Assembly (NCBI GenBank): GCA_016212665.1
Contig: JACREZ010000034.1
Span: 62,001-126,000 of the forward strand
Direction of reading: 5' to 3'
Length of the DNA stretch: 64,000 nt
From: Ignavibacteriota bacterium
Lineage (GTDB): Bacteria; Bacteroidota; Ignavibacteria; UBA10030; SZUA-254
Shown here: positions 1,063 to 42,562 of the stretch, in pieces
Position numbering within the stretch: the first letter of the stretch is position 1
How the letters are laid out: each line of letters opens with the position of its first letter
Translations under genes and position numbers: made by a program
The notes under the pieces: generated by a model
The model's input: only the letters and a program-made list of their open reading frames with translations
Database searches by the model: none
What the model was told of the DNA's origin: nothing

Positions 1063-1075
1063 CATGGGGTTTGTC

Positions 1076-4000
1076 ATGAAACGATTGGTTCAATCTACAT
1101 TTATTTTCTTTGTAATTCTTAGTACTCTCGGAGCGTTCGCATTCGGTCAGAAGTTGGACAGAACGACACAGGAGGTAGGCAATCCGAACGAAGTATTTGC
1201 TGCTCCGACGGTTACGAGTTTCTCGCCATCGAGCGGTTCCGGAGGAACACTTGTTACCGTCAACGGAACAAACCTAACAGGCGCAACAGCCATAGCGGTG
1301 AACGGAGTGAGTGTTTCTTCGTTTACGGTCCTTTCTGCAACGCAGATAACGATGACGCTTTCCGATAACAACACGACAGGAAAAGTCTCTGTAACAACTT
1401 CAGGTGGTACAGGATTGAGTAATTCTGATTTTACGGTCTTCCCGAGAATTGATAGTTTTAGTCCGACGAGCGGACCACGCGGTTCAACAGTTATCATCAC
1501 GGGGGGAAATTTCTCCGGTGTAACCTCGGTAAAGTTTAACGGGACGACGGCAACCTTCACAAGAAATTCTGCAACACAAATTACCGCCACTGTTCCAACC
1601 CGTGCTACGAGCGGAAAAGTTACTCTCGCTACTTCAAGTTCCTCCACACAAAGTTCAAGCGCCTTTACCATTCTCTTCCCGCCGAACATTTCCCGGTTCA
1701 GTCCGACACGCGGAGCCGCAGGTGCTTCTGTAACTATCATAGGTTCAGGTTTTGATATTGCCACAGCGGTTTCGTTCAACGGTGCATCGGCATCGTTTAC
1801 GATTATTTCATCAACACAGATTAATGCAACTGTTCCCGCAAACGCGACAAAAGGAAAAATCAGTGTTACAAACGCGGCAGGAACTGATTTGAGCGGGACG
1901 AGTTTTACGGTATTACCAGGCGTCACAAGTTTCTCTCCCACGAGTGGAGTAGCAGGAGATGTCGTAACGATTACGGGAACAGGATTTACAACTGTCCGTT
2001 CGGTAAAGTTCAATGGAATTACAGCGACATTTACAGCAAATTCAGAAAATTCAATTACAGCAGTAGTTCCTTCGCGGGCAACAACCGGAGAAATTACTGT
2101 TACTACGTCAGCAGGTACAGCGACAAGCCCTGAAAACTTCAGCATTTTTCCGAATATTACCTCGTTCACGCCATCAAGCGGACCGGTTGGTACAACGGTG
2201 AATATTACAGGAACGAATTTTACGGGAGCGACTTCGGTAACGTTTAATGGTGTGAGCGCGACGTTTTCAGTTCGGTCATCAACTTCAATTCGTGCTACGG
2301 TTCCTTCGGGTGCTGGTTCGGGTTCGATTCAAGTGACAACTGCCGCGGGAACGGCTGAGAGCGCAACCGATTTTACCGTGACAGGTTCAACGACCGGATT
2401 GGCTATCTCAAGTTTCTCGCCCTCAAGTGGAAATGTAGGGGCAACGGTTGTTATCACCGGAACCGGTTTCAGCGACGTAACGGATGTATTGTTTAACGGT
2501 GTCAGTGCAAGTTTCACCGTCAGTTCATCCACTTCAATCTCTGCCGTCGTTCCGACAGCAGCGAGCATCGGACAGATTTCGGTCAGCACGTCTTCAGATT
2601 TTGCAACAAGTTCGAGCAGTTTCAGTGTGCTTCCTCAGTTGACAAGTTTCACTCCATCAAGCGGTGCTACAGGCTCAAGTGTTGTGATTACGGGTTCGGG
2701 ATTGAGTGGAACAAACTCGGTGAAGTTTAATGGTGTGAGCGCGGGATTCACAATCAATTCGGCAAATCAAGTAACTGCAACGGTTCCATCGAGCGCATCA
2801 ACGGGCAAGATTTCGCTGACAACTCCATCAGGTACGGTGACAAGTTCGACAAACTTCACCGTAACAGGCGCGCCGGTCATCACAAGTTTTTCTCCATCAA
2901 GCAGTACAACGGGCGCAACGATTACAATTCTCGGCGCGAACTTTACCGGAGCGTCGGTACAGTTTAACGGCGTCGCTGCATCGGCAACGGTTGTTTCATC
3001 TTCTCAGATTACCGCCGTCGTTCCCTCCACTGCAACAACCGGCTACATCACGGTGACAACTTCTCTCGGTTCATCGAATAGTTCAACAACGTTCACTGTG
3101 CTTCCTTCGATTACTTCGTTTTCACCAACGAGCGGGACAACGGGAAGTACGGTTGTGATTTCCGGTTCCGGTTTCAGCGGTGTTACGTCTGTTCGGTTTA
3201 ATGATGTCAGCGCATCCTTTACCGTCAATAGTGTGAATCAAATTACAGCAACCGTTCCGAGTTCGGCAACAACGGGTCCGGTTCGGGTTGTAACGACTGC
3301 CGGTTCTGCGCCGAGCAACACGAACTTTACCGTAACATCACCGTTGACGCCGCCGACGGTTTCATCATTTTCACCGACGAGCGGAACGGTCGGTACGACA
3401 ATAACTATCAACGGAACGAATTTCTCTGATGCGAGCGGAGTTCAGTTTAACGGGACGAACGCAACGAGTTTTACAGTAGCGTCATCAACTCAAATTACAG
3501 CAACGGTACCGACGGGCGCTTCAACAGGAAAAATAAGTGTTATCAATCCGTCCGGGACCGGAACAAGTTCTTCGAGCTTCACCGTCACCGCCGGTCCATC
3601 AATTGCAACCTTTACGCCGACGAGCGGTCCGGTCGGAACAGTGGTAAGCATCACCGGGGCAAATCTTAGTTCCGTAACCAATGTGTTGTTTAATGGTGTG
3701 AGTGCAACAACGTTTACCATAATCTCATCAACAACCATAAGCGCAACGGTTCCGGCGGACGGAAGCACGGGAAAAATCACTCTTGTTGCTTCTTCAGGAA
3801 ATGTTGTCAGCACGGGAACGTTCAGCGTAACGCCGCAACTGACAAGTTTCACTCCAACAAGCGGAACGAGCGGGACATCGGTTGTCATCAGTGGAAGCGG
3901 ATTTATCGGAGCGACCTCAGTGAAATTTAATGGAGTAAGTTCAACATTCACTTTGAATTCAGCCACTCAGATAACTGCTGTAGTTCCATCAGGAACAACG

Positions 4001-7000
4001 ACCGGGAAAATTGCAGTAACTACTACTTCCGGTACTGCTACGAGTGCGAGTGACTTTACCATTACTGCACCGCCGACGGTTACCAGTTTCACTCCGAATC
4101 GCGGCGCCACAGGAACGGTTGTTTCTATTTTCGGGTCAAACCTGACGGCGACGAGTGTAACATTCAACGGCGTGAGCGCGACATTTACCAATGTTTCTTC
4201 AACGCAGATTACGGCAACGGTTCCCGGCACAGCGACAACAGGAAAGATTGTTGTAACAACTGCAAGCGGAACAGTGATGACAACCAACAATTTTACCGTA
4301 ACACCAACGTTATCAAGTTTTACCCCGACAAGCGGAACGATTGGTTCATCCATTACAATTACCGGAACAGGATTTAGTAGTGTAACAGCGGTTCGATTCA
4401 ATAACGTTATTGCATCGTACACGGTGAACAGTTCAACTGAAATTACAGCCACGGTTCCAAGCGGCGCAACAACGGGACCTGTGAGCGTTACAACATCGTC
4501 CGGTACGGCGACGGGAGGAACAAACTATACGGTGTTACCAAATATCACCACCTTTGCCCCGACCTCCGGAGTCGTCGGGAACACGGTTTTCATAACGGGG
4601 ACGGGATTCACCAATGTCACTTCTGTATTATTGAATGGTGTAGCAGTTACATACACAGTTCAATCTTCAACATCAATTAGGGCGGTCGTGCCGGTCGGTG
4701 CGACAAGCGGTTCGTTCACGGTGACAACCACAGCCGGAACGACATTCAGTGCAGGCACGTATACAGTGATTCCTCCGATTTCTATCACGAGTTTTACTCC
4801 TGCATGCTCTGAAATTTTAACACAGGTGACAGTGACAGGAACGAGTTTCATCAGTGTCACGGAAGTGTTGATTGACACCTCGTTCTGCTTGTTTACCGTG
4901 AACTCATCAACAGAACTTGTTCTTACTGTTCCGGCAACAGCAACGACAGGGAGAATCAAAGTCATTTCATCCATCGGAACTGCGGAGAGCGCGACGGATT
5001 TTGTACCGGTGAATGTTCCCGACGTAACAAGTTTTTCACCGACGAGCGGACCGGTTGGGACAACGGTGATTCTCACAGGAACAGGATTCTGCACAACAAC
5101 CTCAGTTGATTTTAATGGAGTGACAACTTCGTTCACGATTGATTCTGATGTTCAAATCACAACTGTTGTTCCATACGGTGCGACGACGGGACCAATAACC
5201 GTAGTGAACACAGTCGGAACATTTACGACAGCATCTGATTATACGGTTACACCGGACATTCTCAGTTTCACCCCTGCAAGCGGATATGTCGGAGATAATG
5301 TAACTATCACGGGAACAAATTTCCTGACTGTTGGTACGGTTGAATTTAATGGCGTCTCAGCGACATTTACTGTTGACTCCTATTCACAGATTACTGCAAC
5401 TGTTCCGGCAACGGCTACAACCGGTTTGATTACGGTAACTTCACCCACAGAAGGAACCGATGCAAGTTCAACCGCGTACATTGTTCTTCCGAAGATTGAT
5501 AGTTTCACACCGACGACAGGAATCGTTGGCGATGCAGTAACTATTAATGGTTCGGGATTGAACAACGCAACGTCGGTGACGTTCAACGGGACGAGCGCAG
5601 GATACACAGTTGTTTCAGAATCTCAAGTTGATGCTTTCGTTCCGTTTGGCGCGTTGACCGGTTCGATTGTCATCACGACACCGTACGGAACAGCAACAAG
5701 TTCTTCGTACTTCAATGTCGAGCCGAACATCACCGGATTTACTCCGGTAAATGGTGTAGTCGGTGATAACGTCACCATTTTTGGTTCAGCCTTCATCGGT
5801 ACAACCGATGTTCAGTTCAATGGAACGAGCGCTACATTTACGATTGACTCGTATTCACAAATTACTGCAACGGTTCCGAGCAATGCATCAACCGGTGTGA
5901 TTACGGTGACGACAACTTCCGGAACGGATAATAGCGCGACAAACTTTACCGTGTTACCAAATATTACTTCGTTCACTCCGACAAGCGGTGTGATTGGTTC
6001 ATCGGTGAATATTTCCGGAACGACATTGACAGCAGTAACCGATGTTGACTTCAATGGAACATCGGCAACGTTTACTGTTTTGTCCGATGTTCTTATCAAC
6101 GCAACCGTTCCAAACGGCGCAACAACCGGACCAATTAGCGTTACAAATCCGGACGGAACGGATTATAGCGCAACCGATTTCACGGTATTACCGGATGTTT
6201 CAAGCTTCACTCCGACTGCCGGAATTGTCGGTGACAACATCACCATTAATGGAACCGGGTTTACCGGTGCGACGGATGTTCAGTTCAACGGAGTGAGTTG
6301 CAGTTTCACGGTGAATTCAGATATTGATATTACCGCAACGGTTCCGAATCTGGCAACGACAGGAGTCGTTACTGTGACTACTCCGTCAGGCACCAATTCA
6401 AGCACAAGCAACTTTACTGTTCAGCCGAACATTGACAGCTTTACACCATTGAGCGACATCGTCGGTGCGTCAGTAACGATAACCGGAACAGCATTTACCG
6501 GTGCGACTTCGGTTGCATTCAACGGAGTGAACGCATCGTACACGGTTAATTCGTATTCACAAATTACTGCAACGGTGCCTGCAACTGCAACCACAGGAGC
6601 GATTACAGTTGTGACGCCTTCCGGTACAGCAACGAGTGCGACAAACTTTGCCGTGGAACCGAACATTACAAGTTTCTCTCCGACAAGCGGAGTGATTACC
6701 GATGTTGTAACGATACTCGGAACAAACTTCACCGGCGCAACGGATGTCTCCTTCAACGGAGTCAGCGCGATAACATTTACTGTTGTATCGGCAACACAAA
6801 TTGATGCAACTGTTCCTTCCGGCGCTTCGACGGGTTTGATTAGTGTTACGACACCTGACGGAACGGATTTCAGCGCTACAAACTTCACAGTCGAGCCGGA
6901 TGTAACAAGTTTTACTCCATCAAGTGGTGAAGTAGGTGACCCGATTACTCTCAATGGAACAGGGTTTACAGGTGCAACTTCTGTTCTCTTCAATGGAGTG

Positions 7001-10000
7001 AGTGCCTCTTTCACTGTCAATTCTGATATAGATATTTCTGCAACGGTTCCGAACAATGCAACAACAGGAACCGTCTCGGTAACAACACCATCGGGAACCG
7101 GAACAAGCAGTACAAACTTTACTGTGCTTCCAACAATTCTGAGTTTCACACCGGCAGGCGGAGTTGTTGGTTCATCGGTGACAATCACCGGTACAGCGTT
7201 TACCGGTGCAACCGCGGTTGCATTTAATGGTGTGAACGCATCATATACGGTTAATTCGTATTCACAGATTACGGCTACCGTTCCATCGGGTGCGACAACG
7301 GGAACTATCACTGTAACAACAGCCGCCGGAACCGCAACGAGTGCAACGAACTTCTCGGTTGGTCCGAACATTACAAGTTTCTCTCCTACAAGTGGAGTGG
7401 TTGGAGATGTAGTAACAATTCTTGGAACAAACTTCACCGGCGCTACAGATGTAGCATTTGATGGTACGAGTGCGGTCGCTTTCACCGTTGTTTCTTCAAC
7501 ACAAATTGATGCAACAGTTCCGACGGGAGCGACAACCGGTTTGATTGAAGTAACGACTCCTGATGGGAATGATTTTAGTGCAACAAATTTCTCCGTCACT
7601 CCTGAGATAACAAGTTTTACTCCTTCAACCGAACAAGTAGGAATGCCGGTTGTTCTCACAGGCACAAGTTTCACCGGTGCAACGTCTGTAACATTTAACG
7701 GCACAAGTGCGAGTTTCACCGTTGATTCTGATGTCCAGATTACCGCGACTGTTCCGAATGGAACAACGGATGGAGTGATTGCCGTAACAACACCATCCGG
7801 CACAGGAACCAGTACAACAAGTTTTGGTATCGAACCGGATGTGACAGGATTTGCGCCTTCAAGCGGGATTGCCGGAACGTCTGTTGTTATTACGGGAACC
7901 GGATTTACCGGAACGACCGTGGTGAATTTTAACGGGACCAACGCGAGTTTTACTCTCAATTCATATACACAGATAACGGCAACGGTTCCAGCCGGAGCGA
8001 CAACGGGAAATATCGGAGTCACAAATTTATCCGGCAACGACATCATGGGAACATTTACCGTTCCTCCGACAATCTCAGGATTTTCTCCTTCGAGCGATGT
8101 CATCGGTTCGGTGGTAACGATAACCGGAACGAATCTTACCGGTGCAACGGCAGTTTCAGTGAATGGCGTTGCAGTTATTACCTATACGGTTGTTTCATCA
8201 ACCCAAATTGATGCAACCGTTCCGGCGAGCGCAACCACCGGTTTGATAAGCGTAACAACTCCAAGCGGAACAGTGAACAGTTCCTCAAGTTTCACCGTGC
8301 TGCCGAACATTACAGGATTCAGTTCTGCTACGGGAACAGTAGGCGCTTCACGAACAATCAACGGCTCGGCATTTACCGGGGCGACTTCGGTGACATTCAA
8401 CGGTGTCAGTGCAAGTTTCTCAGTTAGTTCATCAACTGCAATAACAGCAACAGTTCCAAGCGGAGCCACAACCGGTCCTGTAACAGTAACTACTGCCGCA
8501 GGAACAGCAACAAGCGCATCGAACTTTACAGTCACTCCGAGCATCTCAAGTTTTGCTCCAACGAGCGGCGCGGAAGGTGCAAGCATTACAATCAACGGAC
8601 AGGCATTCACCGGCACTACAAGCGTTGCCTTTAACGGAACGAACGCTTCCTTTACTTTTGTCTCAAATACACAACTCACCGCAACTGTTCCGGTTGGCGC
8701 GACTACAGGAACCATTGTGGTGACAACCCCATCTGGAAGCGGAACAAGCGGTTCGAATTTCTCCGTCGCACCCGCAATCAGTAGTTTGACTGTTTCAAGC
8801 GGTGTTATTGGCTCGACATTCTCTATCATCGGGACATCGTTTACGGGTGTTACATTTGTCAGAATAAATGGTGTGAGTGTTGGCGGCGCGAATTTTACTG
8901 TCGTTTCCACAACGCAAATTGATGTTACCGTCCCCGCGGGTGCAACGTCCGGACTTGTGAGCGTAACAACCGCAGGCGGAACCGCATCAAGTGCGGGGTC
9001 ATTTACCGTGTTACCGAACATTACCGGTTTCTCGGTCGCTTCAGGCGTTGTCGGAACATCAATAACAATTAATGGTTCTGCCTTTACCGGAGCCTCATCG
9101 GTGAAGTTCAACAGTGTCAGTGCAAGTTACTCGGTCTCTTCATCAACCGCCATTACTGCTACTGTTCCGAGCGGTGCAACAACAGGAAGCGTTACCGTGA
9201 CTACGGCCGCGGGAACGGCAACAAGTTCCACCTTCTTCACTGTTCCCCCTTCGATTGCAAGTTTTGCGCCCGGAAACGGCGTGGTAGGTGCAAGTATTAC
9301 CATTACCGGAGAAGCATTTACCGGAGTAACATCGGTGACATTCAACGGTACGTCTGCCGTGTTCACGTTTAACTCGAATACCTCGGTGACTGCGACTGTA
9401 CCAAGCGGCGCTACCGATGGAAACATTCAATTAACCACTCCGAGCGGAACGGCGACGAGCGGCGTTGCATTCGATGTGCTTCCCAAACTTGCAATTCTTG
9501 ACAATCTCCATGCAATGCTTGTGGTTGATGCCAAAGGAATTGAACAGCGTATCTTTTTCGGCGGAGTTGCCGATGCAGATGTTGTTCTTGCAAAAAAATA
9601 TGAATTAGGTCCCGTGATGAAGGGTATCTTCGATGTCCGTTTTGCACCACAAGCGGAAGGTTCAAACGGAAAGTTGGTTGAGATGTTCAGCAACACGCAG
9701 AAGAAGAACATCGAATACCGTCTGCAAATTTCCTCTGCGACATATCCTTTGACGCTCCACTTCGATAAATCGAAAAGCCAGTTTTCGTCAATCAGAATTT
9801 CTTCGATGAAAGATGGTGTCCCTGTTAATCCCATCGAACTGAAGAAGAGCGGAAGCATTACGATTGAAGATGAGAGCGTAAAAGAACTCCTGCTGGAAAT
9901 CGGTGAAGGCGAACCGTTACCGACAGAGTTTGCCTTGAAGCAAAACTACCCGAATCCGTTCAATCCATCCACGACAATTCGGTTTGCCGTGCCGGGAACG

Positions 10001-10210
10001 TATTGGGTTTCGCTCAAAGTCTATAACATGCTCGGCGAAGAAGTTGCCGAACTTATCAATGAACAACGGGAACAGGGCAACTACGAAATGGAATGGAACG
10101 CAGTTGATGTACCGAGCGGCGTTTATACGTATCGCCTGCTTGCGTTTGATATTGCCAATCGTTCGAATGTTGCGTACACTGAGGTGAAAAAGATGCTTAT
10201 GCTTAAATAG
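1076..10210 (+). CDS. Giant secreted IPT/TIG-repeat protein with type IX sorting signal
   Basis: This protein of about 3044 residues starts at ATG 1076, which gives a clean signal peptide (MKRLVQS, hydrophobic core, then AFGQ); upstream in-frame TTG 1013 would bury it. I count 35 IPT/TIG immunoglobulin-like repeats of about 78 residues (nt about 1204-9480). Each opens like ITSFSPTSGxxG and has cores like FNGVSA and ITATVPSGATTG. A linker of about 150 residues follows, then a C-terminal domain with QNYPNPFNPSTTI, VYNMLGEEV and GVYTYRL, the type A sorting domain read by the type IX secretion system. It is very rich in Thr, Ser, Gly and Val and has very few Cys. The likely role is a cell-surface stalk or adhesin; the ligand is unknown. 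It has its own promoter and terminator. Confidence 0.93.
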   Translation: MKRLVQSTFIFFVILSTLGAFAFGQKLDRTTQEVGNPNEVFAAPTVTSFSPSSGSGGTLVTVNGTNLTGATAIAVNGVSVSSFTVLSATQITMTLSDNNTTGKVSVTTSGGTGLSNSDFTVFPRIDSFSPTSGPRGSTVIITGGNFSGVTSVKFNGTTATFTRNSATQITATVPTRATSGKVTLATSSSSTQSSSAFTILFPPNISRFSPTRGAAGASVTIIGSGFDIATAVSFNGASASFTIISSTQINATVPANATKGKISVTNAAGTDLSGTSFTVLPGVTSFSPTSGVAGDVVTITGTGFTTVRSVKFNGITATFTANSENSITAVVPSRATTGEITVTTSAGTATSPENFSIFPNITSFTPSSGPVGTTVNITGTNFTGATSVTFNGVSATFSVRSSTSIRATVPSGAGSGSIQVTTAAGTAESATDFTVTGSTTGLAISSFSPSSGNVGATVVITGTGFSDVTDVLFNGVSASFTVSSSTSISAVVPTAASIGQISVSTSSDFATSSSSFSVLPQLTSFTPSSGATGSSVVITGSGLSGTNSVKFNGVSAGFTINSANQVTATVPSSASTGKISLTTPSGTVTSSTNFTVTGAPVITSFSPSSSTTGATITILGANFTGASVQFNGVAASATVVSSSQITAVVPSTATTGYITVTTSLGSSNSSTTFTVLPSITSFSPTSGTTGSTVVISGSGFSGVTSVRFNDVSASFTVNSVNQITATVPSSATTGPVRVVTTAGSAPSNTNFTVTSPLTPPTVSSFSPTSGTVGTTITINGTNFSDASGVQFNGTNATSFTVASSTQITATVPTGASTGKISVINPSGTGTSSSSFTVTAGPSIATFTPTSGPVGTVVSITGANLSSVTNVLFNGVSATTFTIISSTTISATVPADGSTGKITLVASSGNVVSTGTFSVTPQLTSFTPTSGTSGTSVVISGSGFIGATSVKFNGVSSTFTLNSATQITAVVPSGTTTGKIAVTTTSGTATSASDFTITAPPTVTSFTPNRGATGTVVSIFGSNLTATSVTFNGVSATFTNVSSTQITATVPGTATTGKIVVTTASGTVMTTNNFTVTPTLSSFTPTSGTIGSSITITGTGFSSVTAVRFNNVIASYTVNSSTEITATVPSGATTGPVSVTTSSGTATGGTNYTVLPNITTFAPTSGVVGNTVFITGTGFTNVTSVLLNGVAVTYTVQSSTSIRAVVPVGATSGSFTVTTTAGTTFSAGTYTVIPPISITSFTPACSEILTQVTVTGTSFISVTEVLIDTSFCLFTVNSSTELVLTVPATATTGRIKVISSIGTAESATDFVPVNVPDVTSFSPTSGPVGTTVILTGTGFCTTTSVDFNGVTTSFTIDSDVQITTVVPYGATTGPITVVNTVGTFTTASDYTVTPDILSFTPASGYVGDNVTITGTNFLTVGTVEFNGVSATFTVDSYSQITATVPATATTGLITVTSPTEGTDASSTAYIVLPKIDSFTPTTGIVGDAVTINGSGLNNATSVTFNGTSAGYTVVSESQVDAFVPFGALTGSIVITTPYGTATSSSYFNVEPNITGFTPVNGVVGDNVTIFGSAFIGTTDVQFNGTSATFTIDSYSQITATVPSNASTGVITVTTTSGTDNSATNFTVLPNITSFTPTSGVIGSSVNISGTTLTAVTDVDFNGTSATFTVLSDVLINATVPNGATTGPISVTNPDGTDYSATDFTVLPDVSSFTPTAGIVGDNITINGTGFTGATDVQFNGVSCSFTVNSDIDITATVPNLATTGVVTVTTPSGTNSSTSNFTVQPNIDSFTPLSDIVGASVTITGTAFTGATSVAFNGVNASYTVNSYSQITATVPATATTGAITVVTPSGTATSATNFAVEPNITSFSPTSGVITDVVTILGTNFTGATDVSFNGVSAITFTVVSATQIDATVPSGASTGLISVTTPDGTDFSATNFTVEPDVTSFTPSSGEVGDPITLNGTGFTGATSVLFNGVSASFTVNSDIDISATVPNNATTGTVSVTTPSGTGTSSTNFTVLPTILSFTPAGGVVGSSVTITGTAFTGATAVAFNGVNASYTVNSYSQITATVPSGATTGTITVTTAAGTATSATNFSVGPNITSFSPTSGVVGDVVTILGTNFTGATDVAFDGTSAVAFTVVSSTQIDATVPTGATTGLIEVTTPDGNDFSATNFSVTPEITSFTPSTEQVGMPVVLTGTSFTGATSVTFNGTSASFTVDSDVQITATVPNGTTDGVIAVTTPSGTGTSTTSFGIEPDVTGFAPSSGIAGTSVVITGTGFTGTTVVNFNGTNASFTLNSYTQITATVPAGATTGNIGVTNLSGNDIMGTFTVPPTISGFSPSSDVIGSVVTITGTNLTGATAVSVNGVAVITYTVVSSTQIDATVPASATTGLISVTTPSGTVNSSSSFTVLPNITGFSSATGTVGASRTINGSAFTGATSVTFNGVSASFSVSSSTAITATVPSGATTGPVTVTTAAGTATSASNFTVTPSISSFAPTSGAEGASITINGQAFTGTTSVAFNGTNASFTFVSNTQLTATVPVGATTGTIVVTTPSGSGTSGSNFSVAPAISSLTVSSGVIGSTFSIIGTSFTGVTFVRINGVSVGGANFTVVSTTQIDVTVPAGATSGLVSVTTAGGTASSAGSFTVLPNITGFSVASGVVGTSITINGSAFTGASSVKFNSVSASYSVSSSTAITATVPSGATTGSVTVTTAAGTATSSTFFTVPPSIASFAPGNGVVGASITITGEAFTGVTSVTFNGTSAVFTFNSNTSVTATVPSGATDGNIQLTTPSGTATSGVAFDVLPKLAILDNLHAMLVVDAKGIEQRIFFGGVADADVVLAKKYELGPVMKGIFDVRFAPQAEGSNGKLVEMFSNTQKKNIEYRLQISSATYPLTLHFDKSKSQFSSIRISSMKDGVPVNPIELKKSGSITIEDESVKELLLEIGEGEPLPTEFALKQNYPNPFNPSTTIRFAVPGTYWVSLKVYNMLGEEVAELINEQREQGNYEMEWNAVDVPSGVYTYRLLAFDIANRSNVAYTEVKKMLMLK
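6193..9480 (+). repeat. Higher-order repeat: three-IPT unit of about 705 bases
   Basis: From the 22nd IPT repeat on, neighbours differ but every third repeat is alike. Class A carries NSDIDI/DSDVQI-type cores, class B carries NSYSQITATVP, class C carries VVSSTQIDATVP followed by TTPDG or TTPSG. Class A units begin near 6197, 6901, 7607, 8308 and 9019, steps of 704, 706, 701 and 711 bases. This indicates growth by duplication of a three-domain block rather than single domains. The last round (31-35) has diverged most. Confidence 0.75.
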
Positions 10211-12579: not shown

Positions 12580-13119
12580 ATGATTCTTACAGACAAACAA
12601 ATCCTCGAAGAAATGAAAAAGGGGACAATCGTCATCAAGCCGTTCAAGCGAAAATATCTCGGTTCGAACAGTTACGATGTCCATCTCGGAAAATGGCTTG
12701 CGATGTATAAGGAGGAAATTCTTGACGCGAAGCTACACAATCACGTCCGGTATTTTACCATTCCTAAAGAAGGAATTATTCTCGTGCCGAGCAAGTTATA
12801 TCTCGGTGTAACAGAAGAATACACAGAGACGCATCGCCATGTTCCGTTTCTTGAAGGAAAAAGCAGTATCGGTCGGCTTGGAATTGATATCCATGCGACG
12901 GCGGGAAAAGGAGACATCGGTTTTTGCAATACATGGACGTTAGAAATTTCCGTCCGACAACCCGTTCGGATTTATGCCGGAATGCCAATCGGTCAGTTGA
13001 TTTATTTTGAAGTCAGCGGCGAGGTGGACGTTCCGTATAATCAAAAACAATCTGCCAAATACCGGAAGCGGACAACGAAGCCGGTGGAATCAATGATGTG
13101 GAAAAATTTTATTAAGTAG
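12580..13119 (+). CDS. dcd: dCTP deaminase
   Basis: This 179-residue enzyme deaminates dCTP to dUTP, the first step to dTMP through dUTPase. YLGSNSYDVHLG is the N-terminal family block, GKSSIGRLGI provides the triphosphate-binding Ser/Arg, and WTLEIS holds the catalytic Glu. Length is slightly below the common 188-193. Some family members also hydrolyse dUTP; sequence alone does not settle that here. It follows thrC closely. Its stop codon lies at the start of a degenerate short tandem repeat array. Confidence 0.92.
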   Translation: MILTDKQILEEMKKGTIVIKPFKRKYLGSNSYDVHLGKWLAMYKEEILDAKLHNHVRYFTIPKEGIILVPSKLYLGVTEEYTETHRHVPFLEGKSSIGRLGIDIHATAGKGDIGFCNTWTLEISVRQPVRIYAGMPIGQLIYFEVSGEVDVPYNQKQSAKYRKRTTKPVESMMWKNFIK

Positions 13120-13216
13120 TTGAGTAGTTGAGTACAAAGTAGTTGAGTAATCAGTATGTCAGTATTCAATAGCCAGTAGCCAGTAAATAACAACCTGTAA
13201 CCGATAACCAGAAACC
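13114..13216 (+). repeat. Degenerate heptanucleotide repeat array between dcd and the S9 peptidase
   Basis: GTAGTTGA-type units (repeating about every 8 bases) lead into a series of seven-base units such as TCAGTAT, CCAGTAG, CCAGTAA, CCTGTAA, CCGATAA and CCAGAAA. The same style recurs in many other intergenic regions here, with different unit sequences. The array starts at the dcd stop codon. It resembles the short tandemly repeated repetitive (STRR) sequences of filamentous cyanobacteria. Confidence 0.7.
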
Positions 13217-13232
13217 ATTATTAACAAGAACT

Positions 13233-15350
13233 ATGAAAAGAAACAGTATTTCAATCGCCAATCGTCAATCTAAAATTTTCAATTATATATTCACTCTCAT
13301 TGCTTATTGCTCACTGCTCATAGCTTTAAGCTCACCGCTCATAGCGCAGCCGACGAGAGTGATGGAACTCGAAGACCTGTTCAAAATAAAACGCGTAGCC
13401 GACCCGCAACTTTCTCCCGACGGGAAATGGGTTGCCTACGTTGTAACGGAAGTTGACAAAGCCGCGAACAAATCGAACAGCGACATCTGGCTCATTCCTT
13501 CGGCAGGAGGTGAAGCACGCCAATTGACGTTCGGTCCGAAAGCGGACAGACATCCTCGCTGGTCGCCGGATGGAAAACGGATTGCATTTGAATCGAACAG
13601 GAACGGTTCGTTTCAAATTTTTCTTTTGAATGTCAATGGCGGCGAAGCGAAACAATTAACTTCCATCTCAACAGAGGCAACGCAACCGGTCTGGTCTCGC
13701 GATGGAAAACAAATAGCGTTTGTTTCTGCCGTGTATATGGATTTTTCGCAGATGCCGTACGCACAGAGCGATGCCGCAAACCGGAAAAAGCAGGAAGAGA
13801 AAGATAACAGTAAAGTAAAAGCAAAAATCTTCGGAACGTTGTTATATCGTCACTGGGATAGTTGGGTTGATGAAAAGCGGCAACACTTGTTTGTTATTCC
13901 GGCAGATGGCGGTGACCCGCTCAATGTTACTCCCGGCGACAGAGATGCGGTTCCGACTTCTTCCACATTTTCTGCAGGGGATGATTTCGATTTTTCTCCC
14001 GACGGACTCGAACTTGCTTTCACTGCAACTCCCGTTCCGGTTGAAACAGAAGCATGGAACACGAACCACGATATTTATTCTGTCAATCTCAAAACAAAAG
14101 AGAAAAAACAAATTACAACTAACGCTGCGGCAGATGGTTTCCCGAGATACTCTCCGGACGGAAAATATATCGCTTACCGAGCACAAGCTCGCGCCGGATT
14201 TGAAGCCGACCGTTGGCAGTTGATGTTGCTTGAACGCGCAACGGGAAAAGTGAAAAGCCTGACCGAGAATTTTGATGCAAGCGTGGAAGTATTTGTTTGG
14301 GCAAGCGATAGTAAAACATTGTATTTCGATGCGGAAGAAAAAGCGAACAAGCCAATCTGGTCGGTGACGATTGCTGGAAACGACGCGAAGAAAATTGTTG
14401 ATAACGCGACGAACAGTGAAGTGAATATTTCTTCTGACGGAAAGTTTCTCGTCTTCTCACATCAATCATTGTCGCGGCCGATTGAAATTTACACACAAAA
14501 AACCGACGGGAAAGGATTGAAGCCGCTCACGACGGTGAACGATAGATTGTTTTCTGAAATTCTCATGAACACGCCGGAATATGTCTGGTTCAAAGGCGCA
14601 GGCGGAAAAGACGTGCAAATGTGGATTATCAAACCGCCGATGTTTAATGTATCGCTGAAATATCCGCTTGTGTATTGGGTGCATGGCGGTCCTCAGGGCG
14701 CGTTTATGAATTCATGGTCGTATCGTTGGTGTGCGCAACTCTGGGCGGCACAGGGATATGTGCTTGCACTTCCCAACCCGCGCGGCAGTACGGGATTCGG
14801 TCAGAAATTCACTGATGAAATCAGCCGCGATTGGGGCGGAAAAGTTTTTGAGGATGTCATGAATGGAGTCTCCTTTATGGAACAACAACCGTACATAGAC
14901 GCGACGCACATGGCGGCGGCGGGCGCATCGTTCGGCGGGTACATGATGAACTGGCTCAACGGACACACGGATAAGTTCAAAGCAATTGTCTGTCACGACG
15001 GCGTGTATAACTCGACCAGCAATTACGGAACAACGGAAGAACTCTGGTTCGATGAATGGGAACACGGCATCCCGTGGGAGACTCCGGATTTTGAGAAATT
15101 TTCACCGCATAAATACGCACAGAATTTCAAAACACCGACGCTTGTCATCCACGGCGAATTGGATTACCGCGTTCCTGTGACTGAAGGAATGCAATTGTTC
15201 ACCGCACTTCAGCGCAAAGGAATCCGTTCAAGATTTCTCTATTTCCCTGATGAAGGACATTGGGTATTGAAGCCTCTCAACAGCGAGTTATGGCACAACA
15301 CGGTATTCAAATGGCTTGCAGATTATTTGAAGCCGGGACCGAGATATTGA
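13233..15350 (+). CDS. Secreted S9 family (prolyl oligopeptidase/acylaminoacyl peptidase type) serine peptidase
   Basis: This 705-residue protein has an N-terminal signal peptide ending near PLIAQ, then WD40-like PD40 blades with LSPDGKWVAYV, WSPDGKRIAF and YSPDGKYIAY motifs. The C-terminal alpha/beta hydrolase domain carries the triad: Ser about 565 in GASFGGYMM, Asp about 644 in HGELDYRVP and His about 676 in DEGHW. S9 enzymes cleave small peptides, and this one should act outside the cytoplasm. The signal-peptide coding region is itself built of seven-base repeats like those upstream, so the export signal may be derived from a repeat array. Confidence 0.92.
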   Translation: MKRNSISIANRQSKIFNYIFTLIAYCSLLIALSSPLIAQPTRVMELEDLFKIKRVADPQLSPDGKWVAYVVTEVDKAANKSNSDIWLIPSAGGEARQLTFGPKADRHPRWSPDGKRIAFESNRNGSFQIFLLNVNGGEAKQLTSISTEATQPVWSRDGKQIAFVSAVYMDFSQMPYAQSDAANRKKQEEKDNSKVKAKIFGTLLYRHWDSWVDEKRQHLFVIPADGGDPLNVTPGDRDAVPTSSTFSAGDDFDFSPDGLELAFTATPVPVETEAWNTNHDIYSVNLKTKEKKQITTNAAADGFPRYSPDGKYIAYRAQARAGFEADRWQLMLLERATGKVKSLTENFDASVEVFVWASDSKTLYFDAEEKANKPIWSVTIAGNDAKKIVDNATNSEVNISSDGKFLVFSHQSLSRPIEIYTQKTDGKGLKPLTTVNDRLFSEILMNTPEYVWFKGAGGKDVQMWIIKPPMFNVSLKYPLVYWVHGGPQGAFMNSWSYRWCAQLWAAQGYVLALPNPRGSTGFGQKFTDEISRDWGGKVFEDVMNGVSFMEQQPYIDATHMAAAGASFGGYMMNWLNGHTDKFKAIVCHDGVYNSTSNYGTTEELWFDEWEHGIPWETPDFEKFSPHKYAQNFKTPTLVIHGELDYRVPVTEGMQLFTALQRKGIRSRFLYFPDEGHWVLKPLNSELWHNTVFKWLADYLKPGPRY
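13250..13349 (+). repeat. Heptanucleotide array coding for a signal peptide
   Basis: Units such as TCAATCG, CCAATCG, TCAATCT, then TTGCTTA, TTGCTCA, CTGCTCA, TAGCTTT, AAGCTCA, CCGCTCA and TAGCGCA run through the first 40 codons of the S9 peptidase. Three units make 21 bases, so the protein has a seven-residue echo: SLLIALS followed by SPLIAQ. Same repeat style as in the neighbouring intergenic region. Confidence 0.65.
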
Positions 15351-15413
15351 ACGATGGAGGAGCGGAGTATTGGATTGATGGAGAGTTGGAGTAATGGATT
15401 GCTGGTTCGTTGT
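15351..15413 (+). repeat. Heptanucleotide array after the S9 peptidase
   Basis: The units GATGGAG, GAGCGGA, GTATTGG, ATTGATG, GAGAGTT, GGAGTAA and TGGATTG follow each other directly after the peptidase stop codon. Purine-rich variant of the dispersed family. Confidence 0.6.
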
Positions 15414-19573: not shown

Positions 19574-20254
19574 ATGATTCCTCTCCGAGATACTAACCCT
19601 TCACGAACGACTCCGTTCATTACGTACATCATCATTGGATTAAATGTTGTGGTGTTTGGCTTCGAGTTTTTGCTCGGTGAACATCAAGCCGAGTTGTTTT
19701 ATTACTTCGGCGTGATTCCCGCGCGGCTCACCGCTTCTGCCGATTATGAATTCTCCGGCATCTTTTCGTCGTTCACAATTTTTACTTCAATGTTTCTTCA
19801 TGGCGGCATTATGCACCTCATCGGGAATATATTGTTCCTCTATGTGTTCGGTGATAATGTAGAAGACCGACTCGGACATTTCAAGTACATCGTTTTTTAT
19901 CTTCTTGCGGGAGTAGCCGCGGCATTGACACAGGTCTTCATCGCACCGGAATCGGAAGTGCCGATGATTGGCGCAAGCGGCGCTATTGCAGGAGTGTTAG
20001 GTGCATATGTGTTCTTGTTCCCGCGTGCGCGTGTTTCGACCCTCATTCCGCTTTTTATTTTCTTTCAAGTGGTAGAGTTGCCTGCATTTCTTTTTCTCGG
20101 TTTGTGGTTCCTCATGCAGATGTTTAGCGGCGTGATGTCGCTTGGTATTGGCGGCGATGCTGGTGGCGTTGCATGGTGGGCACACATCGGTGGGTTTGCC
20201 GCAGGCGCCGCACTGTTGCCGATCTTGAAAAAACGTGAGTATGTGGCTGAGTAA
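19574..20254 (+). CDS. Rhomboid family intramembrane serine protease
   Basis: This 226-residue protein has six or so membrane segments. MIPLRDTNPSR is the usual head of bacterial rhomboids. HGGIMHLIGNILFLYVFG is the conserved His/Asn region that lines the active site. GASGAIAG carries the nucleophile S135, and the catalytic His is H204 in WWAHIGGFAAG. Rhomboids cut transmembrane helices; the substrate is unknown. The stop codon runs into a heptanucleotide array that leads to the next gene. Confidence 0.93.
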   Translation: MIPLRDTNPSRTTPFITYIIIGLNVVVFGFEFLLGEHQAELFYYFGVIPARLTASADYEFSGIFSSFTIFTSMFLHGGIMHLIGNILFLYVFGDNVEDRLGHFKYIVFYLLAGVAAALTQVFIAPESEVPMIGASGAIAGVLGAYVFLFPRARVSTLIPLFIFFQVVELPAFLFLGLWFLMQMFSGVMSLGIGGDAGGVAWWAHIGGFAAGAALLPILKKREYVAE

Positions 20255-20369
20255 TCAGTATTCAGTACTCAGTAATGAATCTTAGAGATAACTCATATCG
20301 TGTTTCTCACATCCCGTATCAATCAATTAATTCGCAATTGACAATCCGAAATCCGAAATCAAATCTCGA
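20250..20369 (+). repeat. Heptanucleotide array spanning the start of the Fe-S oxidoreductase gene
   Basis: TAATCAG, TATTCAG, TACTCAG and TAATGAA follow the rhomboid stop codon, and later CAATTGA, CAATCCG, AAATCCG and AAATCAA lie inside the first codons of the next gene. The annotated ATG at 20275 is part of a repeat unit. Confidence 0.6.
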
Positions 20370-23696: not shown

Positions 23697-24159
23697 GAAA
23701 AAATATCTCCTTATCGAATCAACCATTACGATTGTGCTGAGCATGTTGTTTGGCTTGGCGGTCGGCGTCGGTTCGTACACGTTTATCTACGCCAAAGGCG
23801 GCTCGTACATGACGAACGACCCTGCCGCCTGCGCAAACTGCCACATCATGAACGACCAATATTCCTCATGGTTGAAGTCGAGTCACCGTTCTGTTGCCGT
23901 TTGTAATGATTGCCATACGCCGCCCGGGTTCGTTTCAAAATACATGACGAAAGCATCGAACGGATTTTGGCATTCGTTCGCGTTTACTTCGGGCGATTTC
24001 CACGAGCCGATTCAAATCAAACCACATAATAAAGAAGTTACCGAACAGGCGTGCCGAAAATGCCACGAACCGATTGTCGAAGCAATCGAAGGACCGCATG
24101 GAGAAGGAGAACAACTCGCGTGTCTTCAATGCCATTCATCGGTTGGACATCTGCATTAG
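23695..24159 (+). CDS. nrfH: Cytochrome c nitrite reductase small subunit (membrane quinol dehydrogenase)
   Basis: This 154-residue protein has one N-terminal membrane helix (residues about 8-32) and four CxxCH heme motifs: CANCH, CNDCH, CRKCH and CLQCH. This is the NapC/NirT-type tetraheme NrfH that oxidises menaquinol and feeds electrons to NrfA. The KGGSYMTNDPAACANC stretch is typical of the first heme region. nrfA follows 153 bases downstream, with a repeat array in between. Together they carry out nitrite ammonification. Confidence 0.95.
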   Translation: MKKYLLIESTITIVLSMLFGLAVGVGSYTFIYAKGGSYMTNDPAACANCHIMNDQYSSWLKSSHRSVAVCNDCHTPPGFVSKYMTKASNGFWHSFAFTSGDFHEPIQIKPHNKEVTEQACRKCHEPIVEAIEGPHGEGEQLACLQCHSSVGHLH

Positions 24160-24312
24160 TCAATTGTTCATAGTCATTAGTCATTGGTCATTTGGCAATA
24201 ATCAATAAATGGAATCTGAAACTTTAATTCTAAATCCTGAATCTTGAATCTTTCAACCCGAAAAATTATACCCAAAACACAAAATCTGTAACCCGTAACC
24301 AGTAGTAAATTT
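24160..24312 (+). repeat. Heptanucleotide array between nrfH and nrfA
   Basis: TAGTCAT, TAGTCAT, TGGTCAT, then AATCCTG, AATCTTG, AATCTTT, CAACCCG and finally GTAACCC, GTAACCA fill nearly the whole 153-base gap. It is the longest array in the window and sits inside what should be one operon. Confidence 0.7.
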
Positions 24313-32586: not shown

Positions 32587-32660
32587 TTTCGAATTAGCGG
32601 TTGCATGTACAACTCACAACACATAACATTTTTTAATTTTTCATTTTACATTTTGCATTG
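32587..32660 (+). repeat. Heptanucleotide array between etfB and etfA
   Basis: ACAACTC, ACAACAC and ATAACAT lead into TTTTTCA, TTTTACA, TTTTGCA and TTGATAT. It fills the gap between two genes whose products form one complex. Confidence 0.6.
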
Positions 32661-32662
32661 AT

Positions 32663-33634
32663 ATGAAGCTATTGTCATTCGCTGAACAGCGAGAAGGTAA
32701 GTTTAAGAAATCTGCATTTGAAACAACACAAGCCGCACGCAACATTGCAGACACATTGGGAGCGGAACTTGTTACGCTCGTTGTCGGAAACAATGTGCAG
32801 GGCATCGCTTCCGAGTTGGGAAAGTACGGAGCGACAAAAGTTATCGTTGTGCAGGATGCACGTTTGCAATTATATTCGACCACGGCGTACAGCAAAATCG
32901 TTGCAGAGATTACGAAACGCGAACAGGCGTCCGTTGTATTTCTTCCTGCAAGTCAGATGGGAAAAGATTTGGCATCGCGTGTTGCGGTGAAGTTGGATGC
33001 AGGCATCGCCGCAGATTGCACCGCGCTGAAAGTGGAAAAAGGAACCATTGTTGCAACCAGACCGATTTATGCAGGCAAGGCATTTATTGATGTCACCGTC
33101 TCTTCGCCAGTCAAACTCTTCACGCTTCGACCGAATGTTTTTACTGCAACACCAAGCACAGGGACAGCAACTGTTGAAACTGCAACTGTTGAATTGAATG
33201 ATGCCGATTTCAAAACAAAAGCGACGGCAGTGAAAATTGCAGAAGGTCGTCCGGATTTAACAGAAGCAAGTATCGTCGTCTCCGGCGGTCGGGGAATGAA
33301 AGCCCCCGAACATTTCACAATGCTCGAACAACTTGCCGATATTCTCGGCGGTGCAGTCGGTGCAAGCCGCGCGGTCGTTGATGCGGGTTGGCGTCCGCAT
33401 GATGAACAAGTCGGGCAGACCGGAAAAACGGTATCACCTTCGCTGTACATCGCGTGCGGAATTTCCGGGGCGATTCAGCATCTCGCCGGAATGTCTTCCT
33501 CGAAATGTATTGTCGCCATCAACAAAGATAAAGACGCTCCGATATTTCAGGTTGCAGATTACGGAATCGTTGGGGATGTATTTGAAGTTCTGCCGAAACT
33601 CAACGAAGCGTGCAAAACAGCGTTAGGCAAATAA
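32663..33634 (+). CDS. etfA: Electron transfer flavoprotein alpha subunit
   Basis: This 323-residue subunit carries the FAD in its C-terminal domain: VVSGGRGMKAPEHF, GASRAVVDAGWRP and the FAD motif QTGKTVSPSLYIACGISGAIQHLAGM, then INKDKDAPIFQVADYGIVGD. It is the partner of the upstream etfB. The gene after it starts four bases later, so the three may share a transcript. Confidence 0.95.
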   Translation: MKLLSFAEQREGKFKKSAFETTQAARNIADTLGAELVTLVVGNNVQGIASELGKYGATKVIVVQDARLQLYSTTAYSKIVAEITKREQASVVFLPASQMGKDLASRVAVKLDAGIAADCTALKVEKGTIVATRPIYAGKAFIDVTVSSPVKLFTLRPNVFTATPSTGTATVETATVELNDADFKTKATAVKIAEGRPDLTEASIVVSGGRGMKAPEHFTMLEQLADILGGAVGASRAVVDAGWRPHDEQVGQTGKTVSPSLYIACGISGAIQHLAGMSSSKCIVAINKDKDAPIFQVADYGIVGDVFEVLPKLNEACKTALGK

Positions 33635-40908: not shown

Positions 40909-41928
40909 ATGAAAGAGACAACGCTCATCACTGTCTCTCCGCATCAACCCGAAGAGTCAATTATTAATATTGCGGCGGAGGTGTTGCAACAAGGCGGACT
41001 CGTCGCCTTCCCGACAGAAACGGTCTATGGGCTCGGCGCCGATGCGCTGAATCCCAATGCTGTAAAAAAAGTGTTTGATGCAAAAGGACGCCCGGCAGAT
41101 AATCCGCTCATTGTTCACATCGCTTCTATCGAACAATTGTTTGAACTGGGAAGAGAAATTTCTCCCGTTGCCCGAACTCTTGCCGAAACATTCATGCCGG
41201 GACCGTTGACGCTTGTAGTCAAACATTCATCCATTGTTCCGGAAATTATTACCGCAGGGTTGGATACCATCGCGCTTCGAATGCCGAATCATGCAGTTCC
41301 GCTTGCTCTTGTAAGAAAACTCAAGCACGGAATTGTCGGACCGAGCGCAAACCGTTCGGGCAAACCAAGTCCCACAACCGCGCAACATGTGTTTGATGAT
41401 TTGAACGGGAGAATTGAAATGATTCTCGATGCCGGAGCGACAGAGATTGGCGTTGAATCAACGGTCATTGATACAACATCGAATCTACCTACTATTCTCC
41501 GCCCCGGAGGAATTTCGCGTGAACGACTTGAGCGAGTAATCGGCACAGTTCAAACAGCAAAAGATATTGAACAAATGAAACGCTCACCGGGAACACGGCA
41601 TCGTCATTACGCGCCCGATGTGCAGGTGATTTTGGTAGAGCCAAAAAATGTCGGGCAATTCAATCAACAATGGAACAAACTTCAGCAAGAAGGAAAAAAC
41701 GTTCGGGCGATTATCTATAGCGATGAGTTACGTGCGCTGTCGAACGGCTCATCATTTCTTGTGCTTCAATCATCCACTGAAGGATACGCACAGCGATTGT
41801 TTGATTCGCTTCGCTTATTCGACCAGCCGGAAATTGATGCAATCATCGTCGAGGCGGTTCCTGAAGTCGGACTGGGCGTTGCTGTGATGGATAGACTTCG
41901 GCGCGCTGCGGAAACACAACGCGAATGA
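40909..41928 (+). CDS. L-threonylcarbamoyladenylate synthase, Sua5 type
   Basis: This 339-residue enzyme makes the threonylcarbamoyl-AMP used for t6A37 in tRNA. The YrdC core (about 20-210) shows GGLVAFPTETVYGLGADA, PGPLTLV, and SANRSGKPSPTTAQHV. A C-terminal Sua5 domain (RSPGTRHRHYAP then about 120 residues) makes it the longer Sua5 form rather than TsaC. It is probably cotranscribed with the TonB receptor gene by proximity; no functional link is implied. Confidence 0.92.
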   Translation: MKETTLITVSPHQPEESIINIAAEVLQQGGLVAFPTETVYGLGADALNPNAVKKVFDAKGRPADNPLIVHIASIEQLFELGREISPVARTLAETFMPGPLTLVVKHSSIVPEIITAGLDTIALRMPNHAVPLALVRKLKHGIVGPSANRSGKPSPTTAQHVFDDLNGRIEMILDAGATEIGVESTVIDTTSNLPTILRPGGISRERLERVIGTVQTAKDIEQMKRSPGTRHRHYAPDVQVILVEPKNVGQFNQQWNKLQQEGKNVRAIIYSDELRALSNGSSFLVLQSSTEGYAQRLFDSLRLFDQPEIDAIIVEAVPEVGLGVAVMDRLRRAAETQRE

Positions 41929-42041
41929 TTTCTTTTATTGACGATTTTCGATTTACGATTGAAGATTAATGATTAAAGACACCAATTAACAATCACAAAT
42001 GACAAATGACTAATGACTAATGACAAATAACTATGAACCAC
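41929..42041 (+). repeat. Heptanucleotide array between the Sua5 gene and purE
   Basis: ATTGACG, ATTTTCG, ATTTACG, ATTGAAG, ATTAATG and ATTAAAG are followed by CAAATGA, CAAATGA, CTAATGA, CTAATGA and CAAATAA. The unit periodicity is very clear. The outermost purE ATG (42020) lies within one repeat unit. Confidence 0.75.
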
Positions 42042-42562
42042 AAATGAAGAACAAAAAGATGAAACAGAAAATGAAACCATCAAAGAAACAATTACCTATT
42101 GTTGCCGTCATCATGGGAAGTCAATCAGACTCTGAGACGATGATGCAGGCGAAAGAGATATTGGAAAAATTCGGCGTTGCGTGCGAGTGGAAAATCCTCT
42201 CAGCGCATCGGACTCCTGATGAAGCATTGAACTATGCCGAGACGGCGCTTGACCGCGGAGTGGAAGTGATTATTGCAGGCGCCGGCGGCGCGGCGCATCT
42301 TGCAGGAGTACTTGCGGCGAAAACTCCGTTGCCGGTTATCGGTGTTCCCATCAAATCAAAATCGCTGAACGGACTTGATTCGCTTCTCTCAATGGTGCAG
42401 ATGCCGAGTGGAGTTCCAGTCGCCACCGTTGCGATTGACGGTTCGGCAAACGCGGCATTGCTCGCGTTGCGCATGCTCGGATTGAAATATCCGGCAATCA
42501 TGAAGAAGATGAACGCGTACCGCGAAGAGATGCGCCTAAAAGTGTTGAAAGCGAACGGTTAA
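42020..42562 (+). CDS. purE: N5-carboxyaminoimidazole ribonucleotide mutase
   Basis: This enzyme moves the carboxyl group from N5-CAIR to CAIR in purine synthesis. [14 protein letters not shown] is the ligand-binding start, ILSAHRTPD carries the catalytic His, and [16 protein letters not shown] and [13 protein letters not shown] complete the class I PurE pattern. The core is about 160 residues. The first ATG (42020) lies in a repeat array; in-frame ATGs at 42044, 42059 and 42071 are equally possible, so 8-17 residues at the N terminus are uncertain. purK is not nearby. Confidence 0.9.

What the first reader, a model, noticed from the sequence alone, without database searches (positions are those of the whole stretch)
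13250..13349. A repeat array has become the signal peptide of an S9 peptidase
The first 40 codons of the peptidase at 13233 consist of the same kind of seven-base units as the adjacent intergenic array. Because three units equal 21 bases, the hydrophobic core repeats with a seven-residue period (SLLIALS then SPLIAQ). This would be birth of an export signal from non-coding repeats, in a gene whose catalytic part is conserved.
Basis: partly seen in the sequence, partly recalled or inferred. Interest (0 to 1): 0.65.

Follow-up and report, generated by a model that had tools for sequence, protein, structure and literature searches.

The report
Seven-base repeats rewriting bacterial export signals
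In this groundwater bacterium the export tag of a peptidase is written in seven-base tandem repeats; the tag itself is ancient, but its DNA keeps being overwritten by such repeats, here and in other secreted proteins of its relatives, so that near-identical enzymes in sister species can carry quite different repeat-made tags.

Summary
Codons 6-39 of the S9 peptidase gene (13249-13349) are degenerate 7-nt tandem repeats: lag-7/14/21/28 autocorrelation that stops at the predicted signal-peptide cleavage site, and synonymous recoding does not explain it. The core reads FTLIAYC/SLLIALS/SPLIAQP.

"Birth of an export signal" is not supported. All 29 readable orthologues carry a signal peptide at the same place, many of them repeat-free. 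An ancestral signal has been rewritten. A sister species (92% identity) differs by exactly 21 nt, or three units.

The process is recurrent. In 814 kb of this genome I count 95 such arrays. Inside genes they concentrate in signal peptides (8, expected 1.0) and in T9SS C-terminal sorting domains (14, expected 0.17); both segments are removed after export. Two other genes with 96-97.5% identical mature parts have signal peptides built wholly or partly from different heptamers in the sister species.

Best reading: a known kind of heptamer repeat that turns over fast and is kept where the peptide is later cut off. I found no report of this use in the papers held. How arrays are written and replaced is unknown. 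No export assay exists.

The parts
12580..13119 (+). upstream gene, dCTP-deaminase-like (dcd); directly upstream of the peptidase in many orthologues
   Evidence: ORF; its C-terminal coding end (KPVESMMWKNF) precedes the peptidase in many relatives. The name is from my reading of the sequence, no profile run.
13115..13209 (.). intergenic heptamer array, units AGTAGTT/AGTAGTC/AGTAGCC then ATAACCG/AGAAACC
   Evidence: TRF rows 13115-13149 and 13146-13185; lag-7 self-match 0.44 over 13120-13232; differs from sister species G002 by an 8-nt gap
13233..15350 (+). secreted S9 (prolyl oligopeptidase/Dpp5-like) peptidase, 705 aa, with beta-propeller repeats
13249..13284 (+). coding heptamer array 1 (CAATCGC CAATCGT CAATCTA ...), writes the polar, positively charged n-region SIANRQSKIFN
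   Evidence: shared with G002, replaced by CGCTCAG units in G001
13285..13349 (+). coding heptamer array 2 (GCTCAnn family), writes the hydrophobic core FTLIAYC-SLLIALS-SPLIAQ
   Evidence: TRF 13291-13345 period 21 score 68; synonymous-recoding p = 0.00075 at lag 7 and lag 14
13309..13329 (+). 21-nt segment (three heptamers, seven residues) absent from the sister species G002
   Evidence: alignment A1; length difference -21
13344..13349 (+). predicted signal peptidase I site, A38|Q39, where the periodicity ends
   Evidence: A-Q conserved or similar at this place in orthologues; Q after the cleavage site is the rule in Ignavibacterium album (77%, PMC5837995). Prediction only.
13362..13364 (+). 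alternative in-frame ATG (M44) at the start of the conserved block MELEDLF; the rival start
20245..20292 (.). another array at a site where G002 also has an array, with different units (AGTAATC versus GTACTTT/GTCATTG)
24149..24265 (.). another intergenic array; G002 has 68 nt less and other units
32604..32665 (.). another array upstream of a gene; G002 has other units (GATATGC/CATATCT versus TTTTCAT)
41926..42052 (.). long intergenic array running up to the start of a purE-like gene

Best explanation
The peptidase is an ordinary Sec-exported S9 enzyme whose signal peptide is ancestral. In this Ignavibacteria lineage a mutational process scatters degenerate 7-nt tandem arrays through the genome, mostly between genes. 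When an array falls in a signal peptide and its coding strand lacks stops, it reads as a repeating heptapeptide (three units = 21 nt = 7 codons; as 7 and 3 share no factor, all three frames give the same cyclic heptapeptide). Pyrimidine-rich units such as GCTCAnn give a hydrophobic core, CAATCGT-type units a polar charged n-region. Such arrays survive because the segment only has to be hydrophobic and is cut off after export, while selection keeps the downstream frame, so length changes that persist are multiples of three bases. The same tolerance would explain arrays in the T9SS C-terminal sorting domain, also removed after export. Shown: the arrays, their enrichment at both signals, ancestral signal peptides, differing units between sister species, in-frame length differences. 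Inferred: export by the repeat-coded peptide, selection for hydrophobicity, removal as the reason for tolerance. Unknown: how arrays are written and replaced.
For: Periodicity beyond codon and amino-acid constraints, ending at the cleavage site. All 29 readable S9 orthologues have a signal-peptide-like N-terminus, with or without repeats. Among 80 S9 loci measured, 9 have at least 20/35 lag-7 matches in this region, all from the Ignavibacteria/Bacteroidota side and none from the Verrucomicrobia or Planctomycetes. Array density per 100 kb: signal peptides 49, T9SS sorting domains 503, other coding 2.7, non-coding 30; binomial p = 5.5e-6 and 1.2e-23. 18 of 29 sorting domains have a lag-7 array against 0-1 at other lags except 14; six array-bearing proteins match TIGR04183 above cutoff. 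Sister-species comparison: array lengths at signal peptides differ by -21, 0 and +87 nt (all multiples of 3), intergenic ones by -8, +64, -68, +16 and -1 (none), Fisher p = 0.018; 84 of 87 random coding spans do not differ. L147:4622 is 97.5% identical in the compared part of its mature protein but has GCGGATT/GGGCATT units in one species and GTTTCCG/GTACTTG in the other.
Against: No export assay, expression or proteomic data; signal peptides were judged by a simple hydrophobicity rule, not a trained predictor. The count of signal peptides above threshold (10 of 166 at lag 7) exceeds control lags (8: 4; 10: 0; 11: 2; 13: 2) only moderately; the strength lies in the high scorers. Existing intergenic arrays are only slightly richer in hydrophobic frames than other intergenic DNA (36% versus 28%), so arrays are not strongly pre-adapted. 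Sorting-domain arrays are partly copies of one another, so 14 is not 14 independent events. No good ribosome-binding site precedes ATG 13233. Sister-species numbers are small and the genomes are fragmented drafts.
Confidence: 0.78

Rival explanations
1. Birth: the mature enzyme had no export signal here and non-coding repeats supplied one.
For: The signal-peptide DNA is repeat-made and an array lies just upstream.
Against: All readable orthologues among the relatives, including repeat-free ones, have a signal-peptide-like segment at the same place, and so do the distant-phylum members read; the upstream array has different units.
Confidence: 0.05
2. Contingency locus: a 7-nt unit at the 5' end of a gene is a frame switch, so gain or loss of one unit turns the gene on or off, as in phase-variable surface genes.
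For: Unit length not a multiple of 3, position near the start codon, known enrichment of simple repeats at gene termini (Lin and Kussell as cited in PMC4692102).
Against: Units are degenerate (about 78-82% alike), which should slow slippage; the species compared are all in frame and differ by 21, 0 or 87 nt at these sites; the L147:4622 gene has the same array length in both species with different units, which a slipping tract would not give.
Confidence: 0.08
3. The translated start is M44 (13362) and the array is simply 5' non-coding DNA that happens to be open.
For: Coding statistics favour 13362; no clear ribosome-binding site before 13233.
Against: Frame open across species with only in-frame length changes; orthologues have a signal peptide and an A-Q site exactly there; 13362 lies in the conserved block and also lacks a clear ribosome-binding site.
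Confidence: 0.06
4. The periodicity is a by-product of the leucine/alanine/serine-rich composition of signal peptides and has nothing to do with repeats.
For: Lags 6, 9 and 15 (multiples of 3) also score in some signal peptides.
Against: Lags 7 and 14 are not multiples of 3; synonymous recoding keeps the protein and loses the signal (p = 0.00075 in the core, none of 20,000 for the whole); the 21-nt difference between sister species.
Confidence: 0.02

Closest known systems
TAACTGA heptamer direct repeats of Beggiatoaceae, Cyanobacteria and some Bacteroidetes (MacGregor 2015, PMC4679880)
   Same: 7-nt units, dispersed, mostly intergenic, sometimes at the periphery of coding sequences. That paper notes other heptamer repeats nearby in some Bacteroidetes and gives the reverse-strand reading LSVISYQ; the same heptapeptide in another phase (VISYQLS) occurs in sorting domains here, and an exact TAACTGA pair lies at L140:519-532, inside a gene with such a domain.
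   Different: There one fixed unit dominates and a translational-regulation role is proposed; here units are many and degenerate, differ between sister species at the same site, and concentrate in cleaved export signals.
Heptameric G-rich repeats (GGGAATC, GGGGAYT) of Xanthomonas and Nostoc (PMC4692102)
   Same: heptamer arrays, dispersed, variable copy number, over-represented outside genes
   Different: G-quadruplex-forming fixed unit with a preference for four copies; not described, in the passages I read, as coding for export signals
Short tandemly repeated repetitive (STRR) heptamers of filamentous cyanobacteria (PMC4692102 cites the Calothrix report; details from memory)
   Same: tandem 7-nt units of several types
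   Different: intergenic markers; no coding role known to me
In-frame tandem repeats of archaeal Borg elements (PMC9879509)
   Same: fast-evolving repeats that create protein sequence, more often in proteins with signal peptides
   Different: Borg repeat units in genes are all divisible by three and make disordered regions; here the unit is 7 nt and makes the signal peptide itself

Membership tests
Heptanucleotide tandem-repeat arrays (TAACTGA/STRR/GGGAATC kind) | tandem units of 7 nt in excess of other unit lengths | tested here: met
   68 arrays at lag 7 against 0, 0, 0, 8, 0, 1 at lags 4, 5, 6, 8, 9, 10 in 814 kb
Heptanucleotide tandem-repeat arrays (TAACTGA/STRR/GGGAATC kind) | dispersed and mostly outside genes | tested here: met
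   56 of 95 arrays outside called genes, 30 per 100 kb there against 2.7 in ordinary coding sequence
TAACTGA repeats proper (MacGregor 2015) | one fixed unit sequence, TAACTGA | tested here: not met
   many unit families; the TAACTGA pair found once in 345 loci. Hence not filed as a TAACTGA repeat.
Sec signal peptide, signal peptidase I type | positively charged n-region, uncharged hydrophobic core, small residue at -1 | tested here: met
   MKRNSISIANRQSK - IFNYIFTLIAYCSLLIALSSPLIA | Q; composition only, no trained predictor
Sec signal peptide, signal peptidase I type | drives export and is cleaved | not testable with these tools
   needs a fusion assay or N-terminal proteomics
Peptidase family S9 | Peptidase_S9 domain above curated cutoff with Ser-Asp-His motifs | tested here: met
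   PF00326 210 bits against cutoff 22.6; GASFGG, DYRVP, DEGH
Dipeptidyl-peptidase Dpp5 (NF053518) | score above the NCBIfam cutoff of 900 bits | tested here: not met
   543 bits: Dpp5-like, not filed as Dpp5
T9SS type A sorting domain (for the related C-terminal arrays) | TIGR04183 above cutoff 23 | tested here: met
   six array-bearing proteins score 38.6-48.1 bits; the peptidase itself has no match to this model
Phase-variable contingency locus | length changes by single units that shift the frame within a population | tested here: inconclusive
   between species only multiples of 3 at coding arrays; no population data

The most novel reading that the evidence does not exclude
An unknown, site-directed activity writes and replaces heptamer arrays: in sister species arrays sit at the same orthologous sites (between genes and inside signal peptides) but often with entirely different units, so the site is inherited while the word is rewritten. 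Export signals would then be under a dedicated rapid-diversification process.
Probability: 0.15. Interest if true: 0.85.

Novelty: new variant of a known kind. Interest (0 to 1): 0.58.

Why it matters
Signal peptides are known to vary, but where their raw material comes from is rarely visible. Here one can watch it: heptamer arrays, whose unit shares no factor with three and so reads the same in every frame, repeatedly overwrite export signals while the enzyme behind them hardly changes. It gives a simple account of why such arrays are retained inside genes (in segments that are cut off), explains odd heptad-like N-termini and FGFRISDFG tails in predicted secreted proteins of this group, and makes testable whether repeat turnover alters export.

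Tried and rejected
My first gene caller covered too little of the sequence and was replaced by a hexamer model. Composition as the cause of the periodicity was rejected by synonymous recoding. A test whether arrays confine their variation to particular unit positions gave only weak support (14.7% of arrays at p<0.05) and is not used. Plain alignment identity of array and non-array signal peptides between sister species was too insensitive and too small (3 against 11); the flank-to-flank comparison replaced it. Hydrophobic pre-adaptation of intergenic arrays was tested and is slight. Literature searches found no report of heptamer arrays serving as signal peptides; the library lacks most subscription journals.

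Full report
WHAT IS THERE. The gene at 13233-15350 encodes a 705-residue S9 peptidase with the expected Ser, Asp and His motifs and Dpp5-like similarity below the family cutoff. Bases 13249-13349, codons 6 to 39, are degenerate tandem heptamers in two blocks: CAATCGC CAATCGT CAATCTA, which writes the polar charged start of the signal peptide, and a GCTCAnn block that writes the hydrophobic core FTLIAYC-SLLIALS-SPLIAQ. Self-match is 0.52, 0.50, 0.46 and 0.40 at lags 7, 14, 21 and 28 against 0.21-0.32 elsewhere, and it vanishes in the mature part. Recoding the same protein with synonymous codons does not reproduce it. The intergenic array before the gene (13115-13209) has the same period but other units.

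ANCESTRY. Of 30 orthologous loci fetched from relatives, 29 have a readable N-terminus, and all 29 have a short hydrophobic segment, mostly ending in A-Q or S-Q, just before the conserved block (M/L)E(L/I)EDLF(K/R)IKRVSDPQLSPDG. Many are repeat-free (for example MKRLIVILTLLLAITSIMVAQ in L022). The Verrucomicrobia and Planctomycetes members whose N-termini were printed look the same. So the export signal is old. Glutamine after the cleavage site fits the Q-rule, with 77% reported for Ignavibacterium album (PMC5837995).

REWRITING. Within the genus the three species differ. G002 (92% identical protein) lacks 21 nt, 13309-13329, exactly three heptamers; G001 (78%) has CGCTCAG units in the n-region and no clear array in the core. 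Elsewhere in the group L004, L009, L018, L021 and L025 have their own heptamer-like signal DNA. Of 80 S9 loci measured (79 from a species-level collection plus this one), nine reach 20/35 lag-7 matches, all on the Ignavibacteria/Bacteroidota side.

NOT ONLY THIS GENE. In 814 kb of the genome (21%) there are 95 merged arrays, 11.7 per 100 kb, far above control lags; most relatives sampled have fewer. Eight arrays lie in signal peptides, this one included. The other seven belong to a DPP IV-like S9 peptidase (LYFVLCTLYVVTLNAQ), an M64 and an M28 peptidase, an LptC-like lipoprotein, a protein with a weak, below-cutoff BatD match, a conserved protein without Pfam match, and a lipoprotein-like protein. 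Fourteen lie in one loop of the T9SS C-terminal sorting domain, where PNPFNPxT is followed by NFGFRISDFG (unit GATTTCG) or VISYQLPVDS (unit GTTATCA) before VTLKVYD. Expected numbers under uniform placement in coding sequence are 1.0 and 0.17. 18 of 29 sorting domains show the period, against 0-1 at other lags apart from lag 14, and 12 of 29 at p<0.01 by synonymous recoding. Remaining coding arrays are few and, where read, sit in apparent loops or linkers: an ATP synthase gamma-like protein, a glycogen synthase-like protein, a response regulator (names from my reading).

SITE KEPT, UNIT CHANGED. Flank-to-flank comparison with G002 recovers the orthologous site for eleven arrays. At window 20245, 24149 and 32604 and at L147:4606 both species have an array at the same site but with unrelated units; at L048:5271 and L147:14025 the units are partly shared. 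L147:4622-5989 is the clearest: mature parts 97.5% identical over the residues compared, array spans of equal length (174 nt), units GCGGATT/GGGCATT in one and GTTTCCG/GTACTTG in the other, and the start codon overlaps the preceding stop, so the array cannot have come in from intergenic DNA. Length differences are multiples of three at the three signal peptides and at none of five intergenic arrays (Fisher p = 0.018); 84 of 87 control coding spans show no difference. Of four sorting-domain arrays recovered, two (L033, L147:18804) keep their unit in G002 at equal length; a third (L146:17309) does not, though that pairing may be with a paralogue.

MECHANISM. Seven and three share no factor, so a stop-free array gives the same cyclic heptapeptide in all frames, and three units restore the frame. 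69% of all heptamers are stop-free on a given strand and 6.4% encode an uncharged hydrophobic heptapeptide that can be extended indefinitely, against 0.28% of random 42-mers. Yet the intergenic arrays that exist are only slightly richer in hydrophobic frames than other intergenic DNA (36% against 28%), so raw supply alone is not the explanation; tolerance plus selection at a cleaved segment is the better one. I infer, and have not shown, that the repeat-coded peptide exports the enzyme.

WHAT IS KNOWN. Heptamer arrays are known in Beggiatoaceae, Cyanobacteria, Bacteroidetes (PMC4679880) and Xanthomonas/Nostoc (PMC4692102), where enrichment of simple repeats at gene termini is also cited. MacGregor noted that coding copies sit mostly at protein ends and that the reverse repeat encodes LSVISYQ; here the same heptapeptide in another phase (VISYQLS) occurs in sorting domains. 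Borg repeats create protein sequence but in units divisible by three (PMC9879509). I found no report in the held library of arrays as signal peptides, nor of their turnover between sister species.

LIMITS. Draft genomes, a 21% sample, home-made gene and signal-peptide calling, few sister-species pairs, correlated sorting-domain copies, no experimental data.

Noticed in passing
L050:3758-3829, L032:6408-6464, L147:18804-18853 and eleven other sites: T9SS sorting domains carry heptamer arrays in the loop after PNPFNPxT (NFGFRISDFG or VISYQLPVDS); 18 of 29 such domains in the sample show the period.
   Followed up: partly
L147:18640-18882 against G002: The DNA of this sorting domain matches some two dozen or more places in the sister genome at about 68-91% identity, which suggests copying or conversion among sorting domains.
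   Followed up: no
L035:14473-14539: An ATP synthase gamma-like gene contains a CATCTCA array encoding a TSHISHLTSHI-type insertion.
   Followed up: partly
L036:2159-2224 and L045:7851-7899: Heptamer arrays inside a glycogen synthase-like and an RnfC-like gene (names from my reading), in apparent loops.
   Followed up: no
window 41926-42052: A 127-nt heptamer array runs up to the start of a purE-like gene, with possible alternative upstream starts.
   Followed up: no
window 15353-15405: A 24-nt period tandem repeat (GATGGAGAGTCGGAGTAATGGATT) follows directly after the peptidase stop codon.
   Followed up: no
window 1064-10210: A 3048-residue protein of many similar domains (IPT/TIG-like by eye) ending in a T9SS-type tail without an array.
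   Followed up: no
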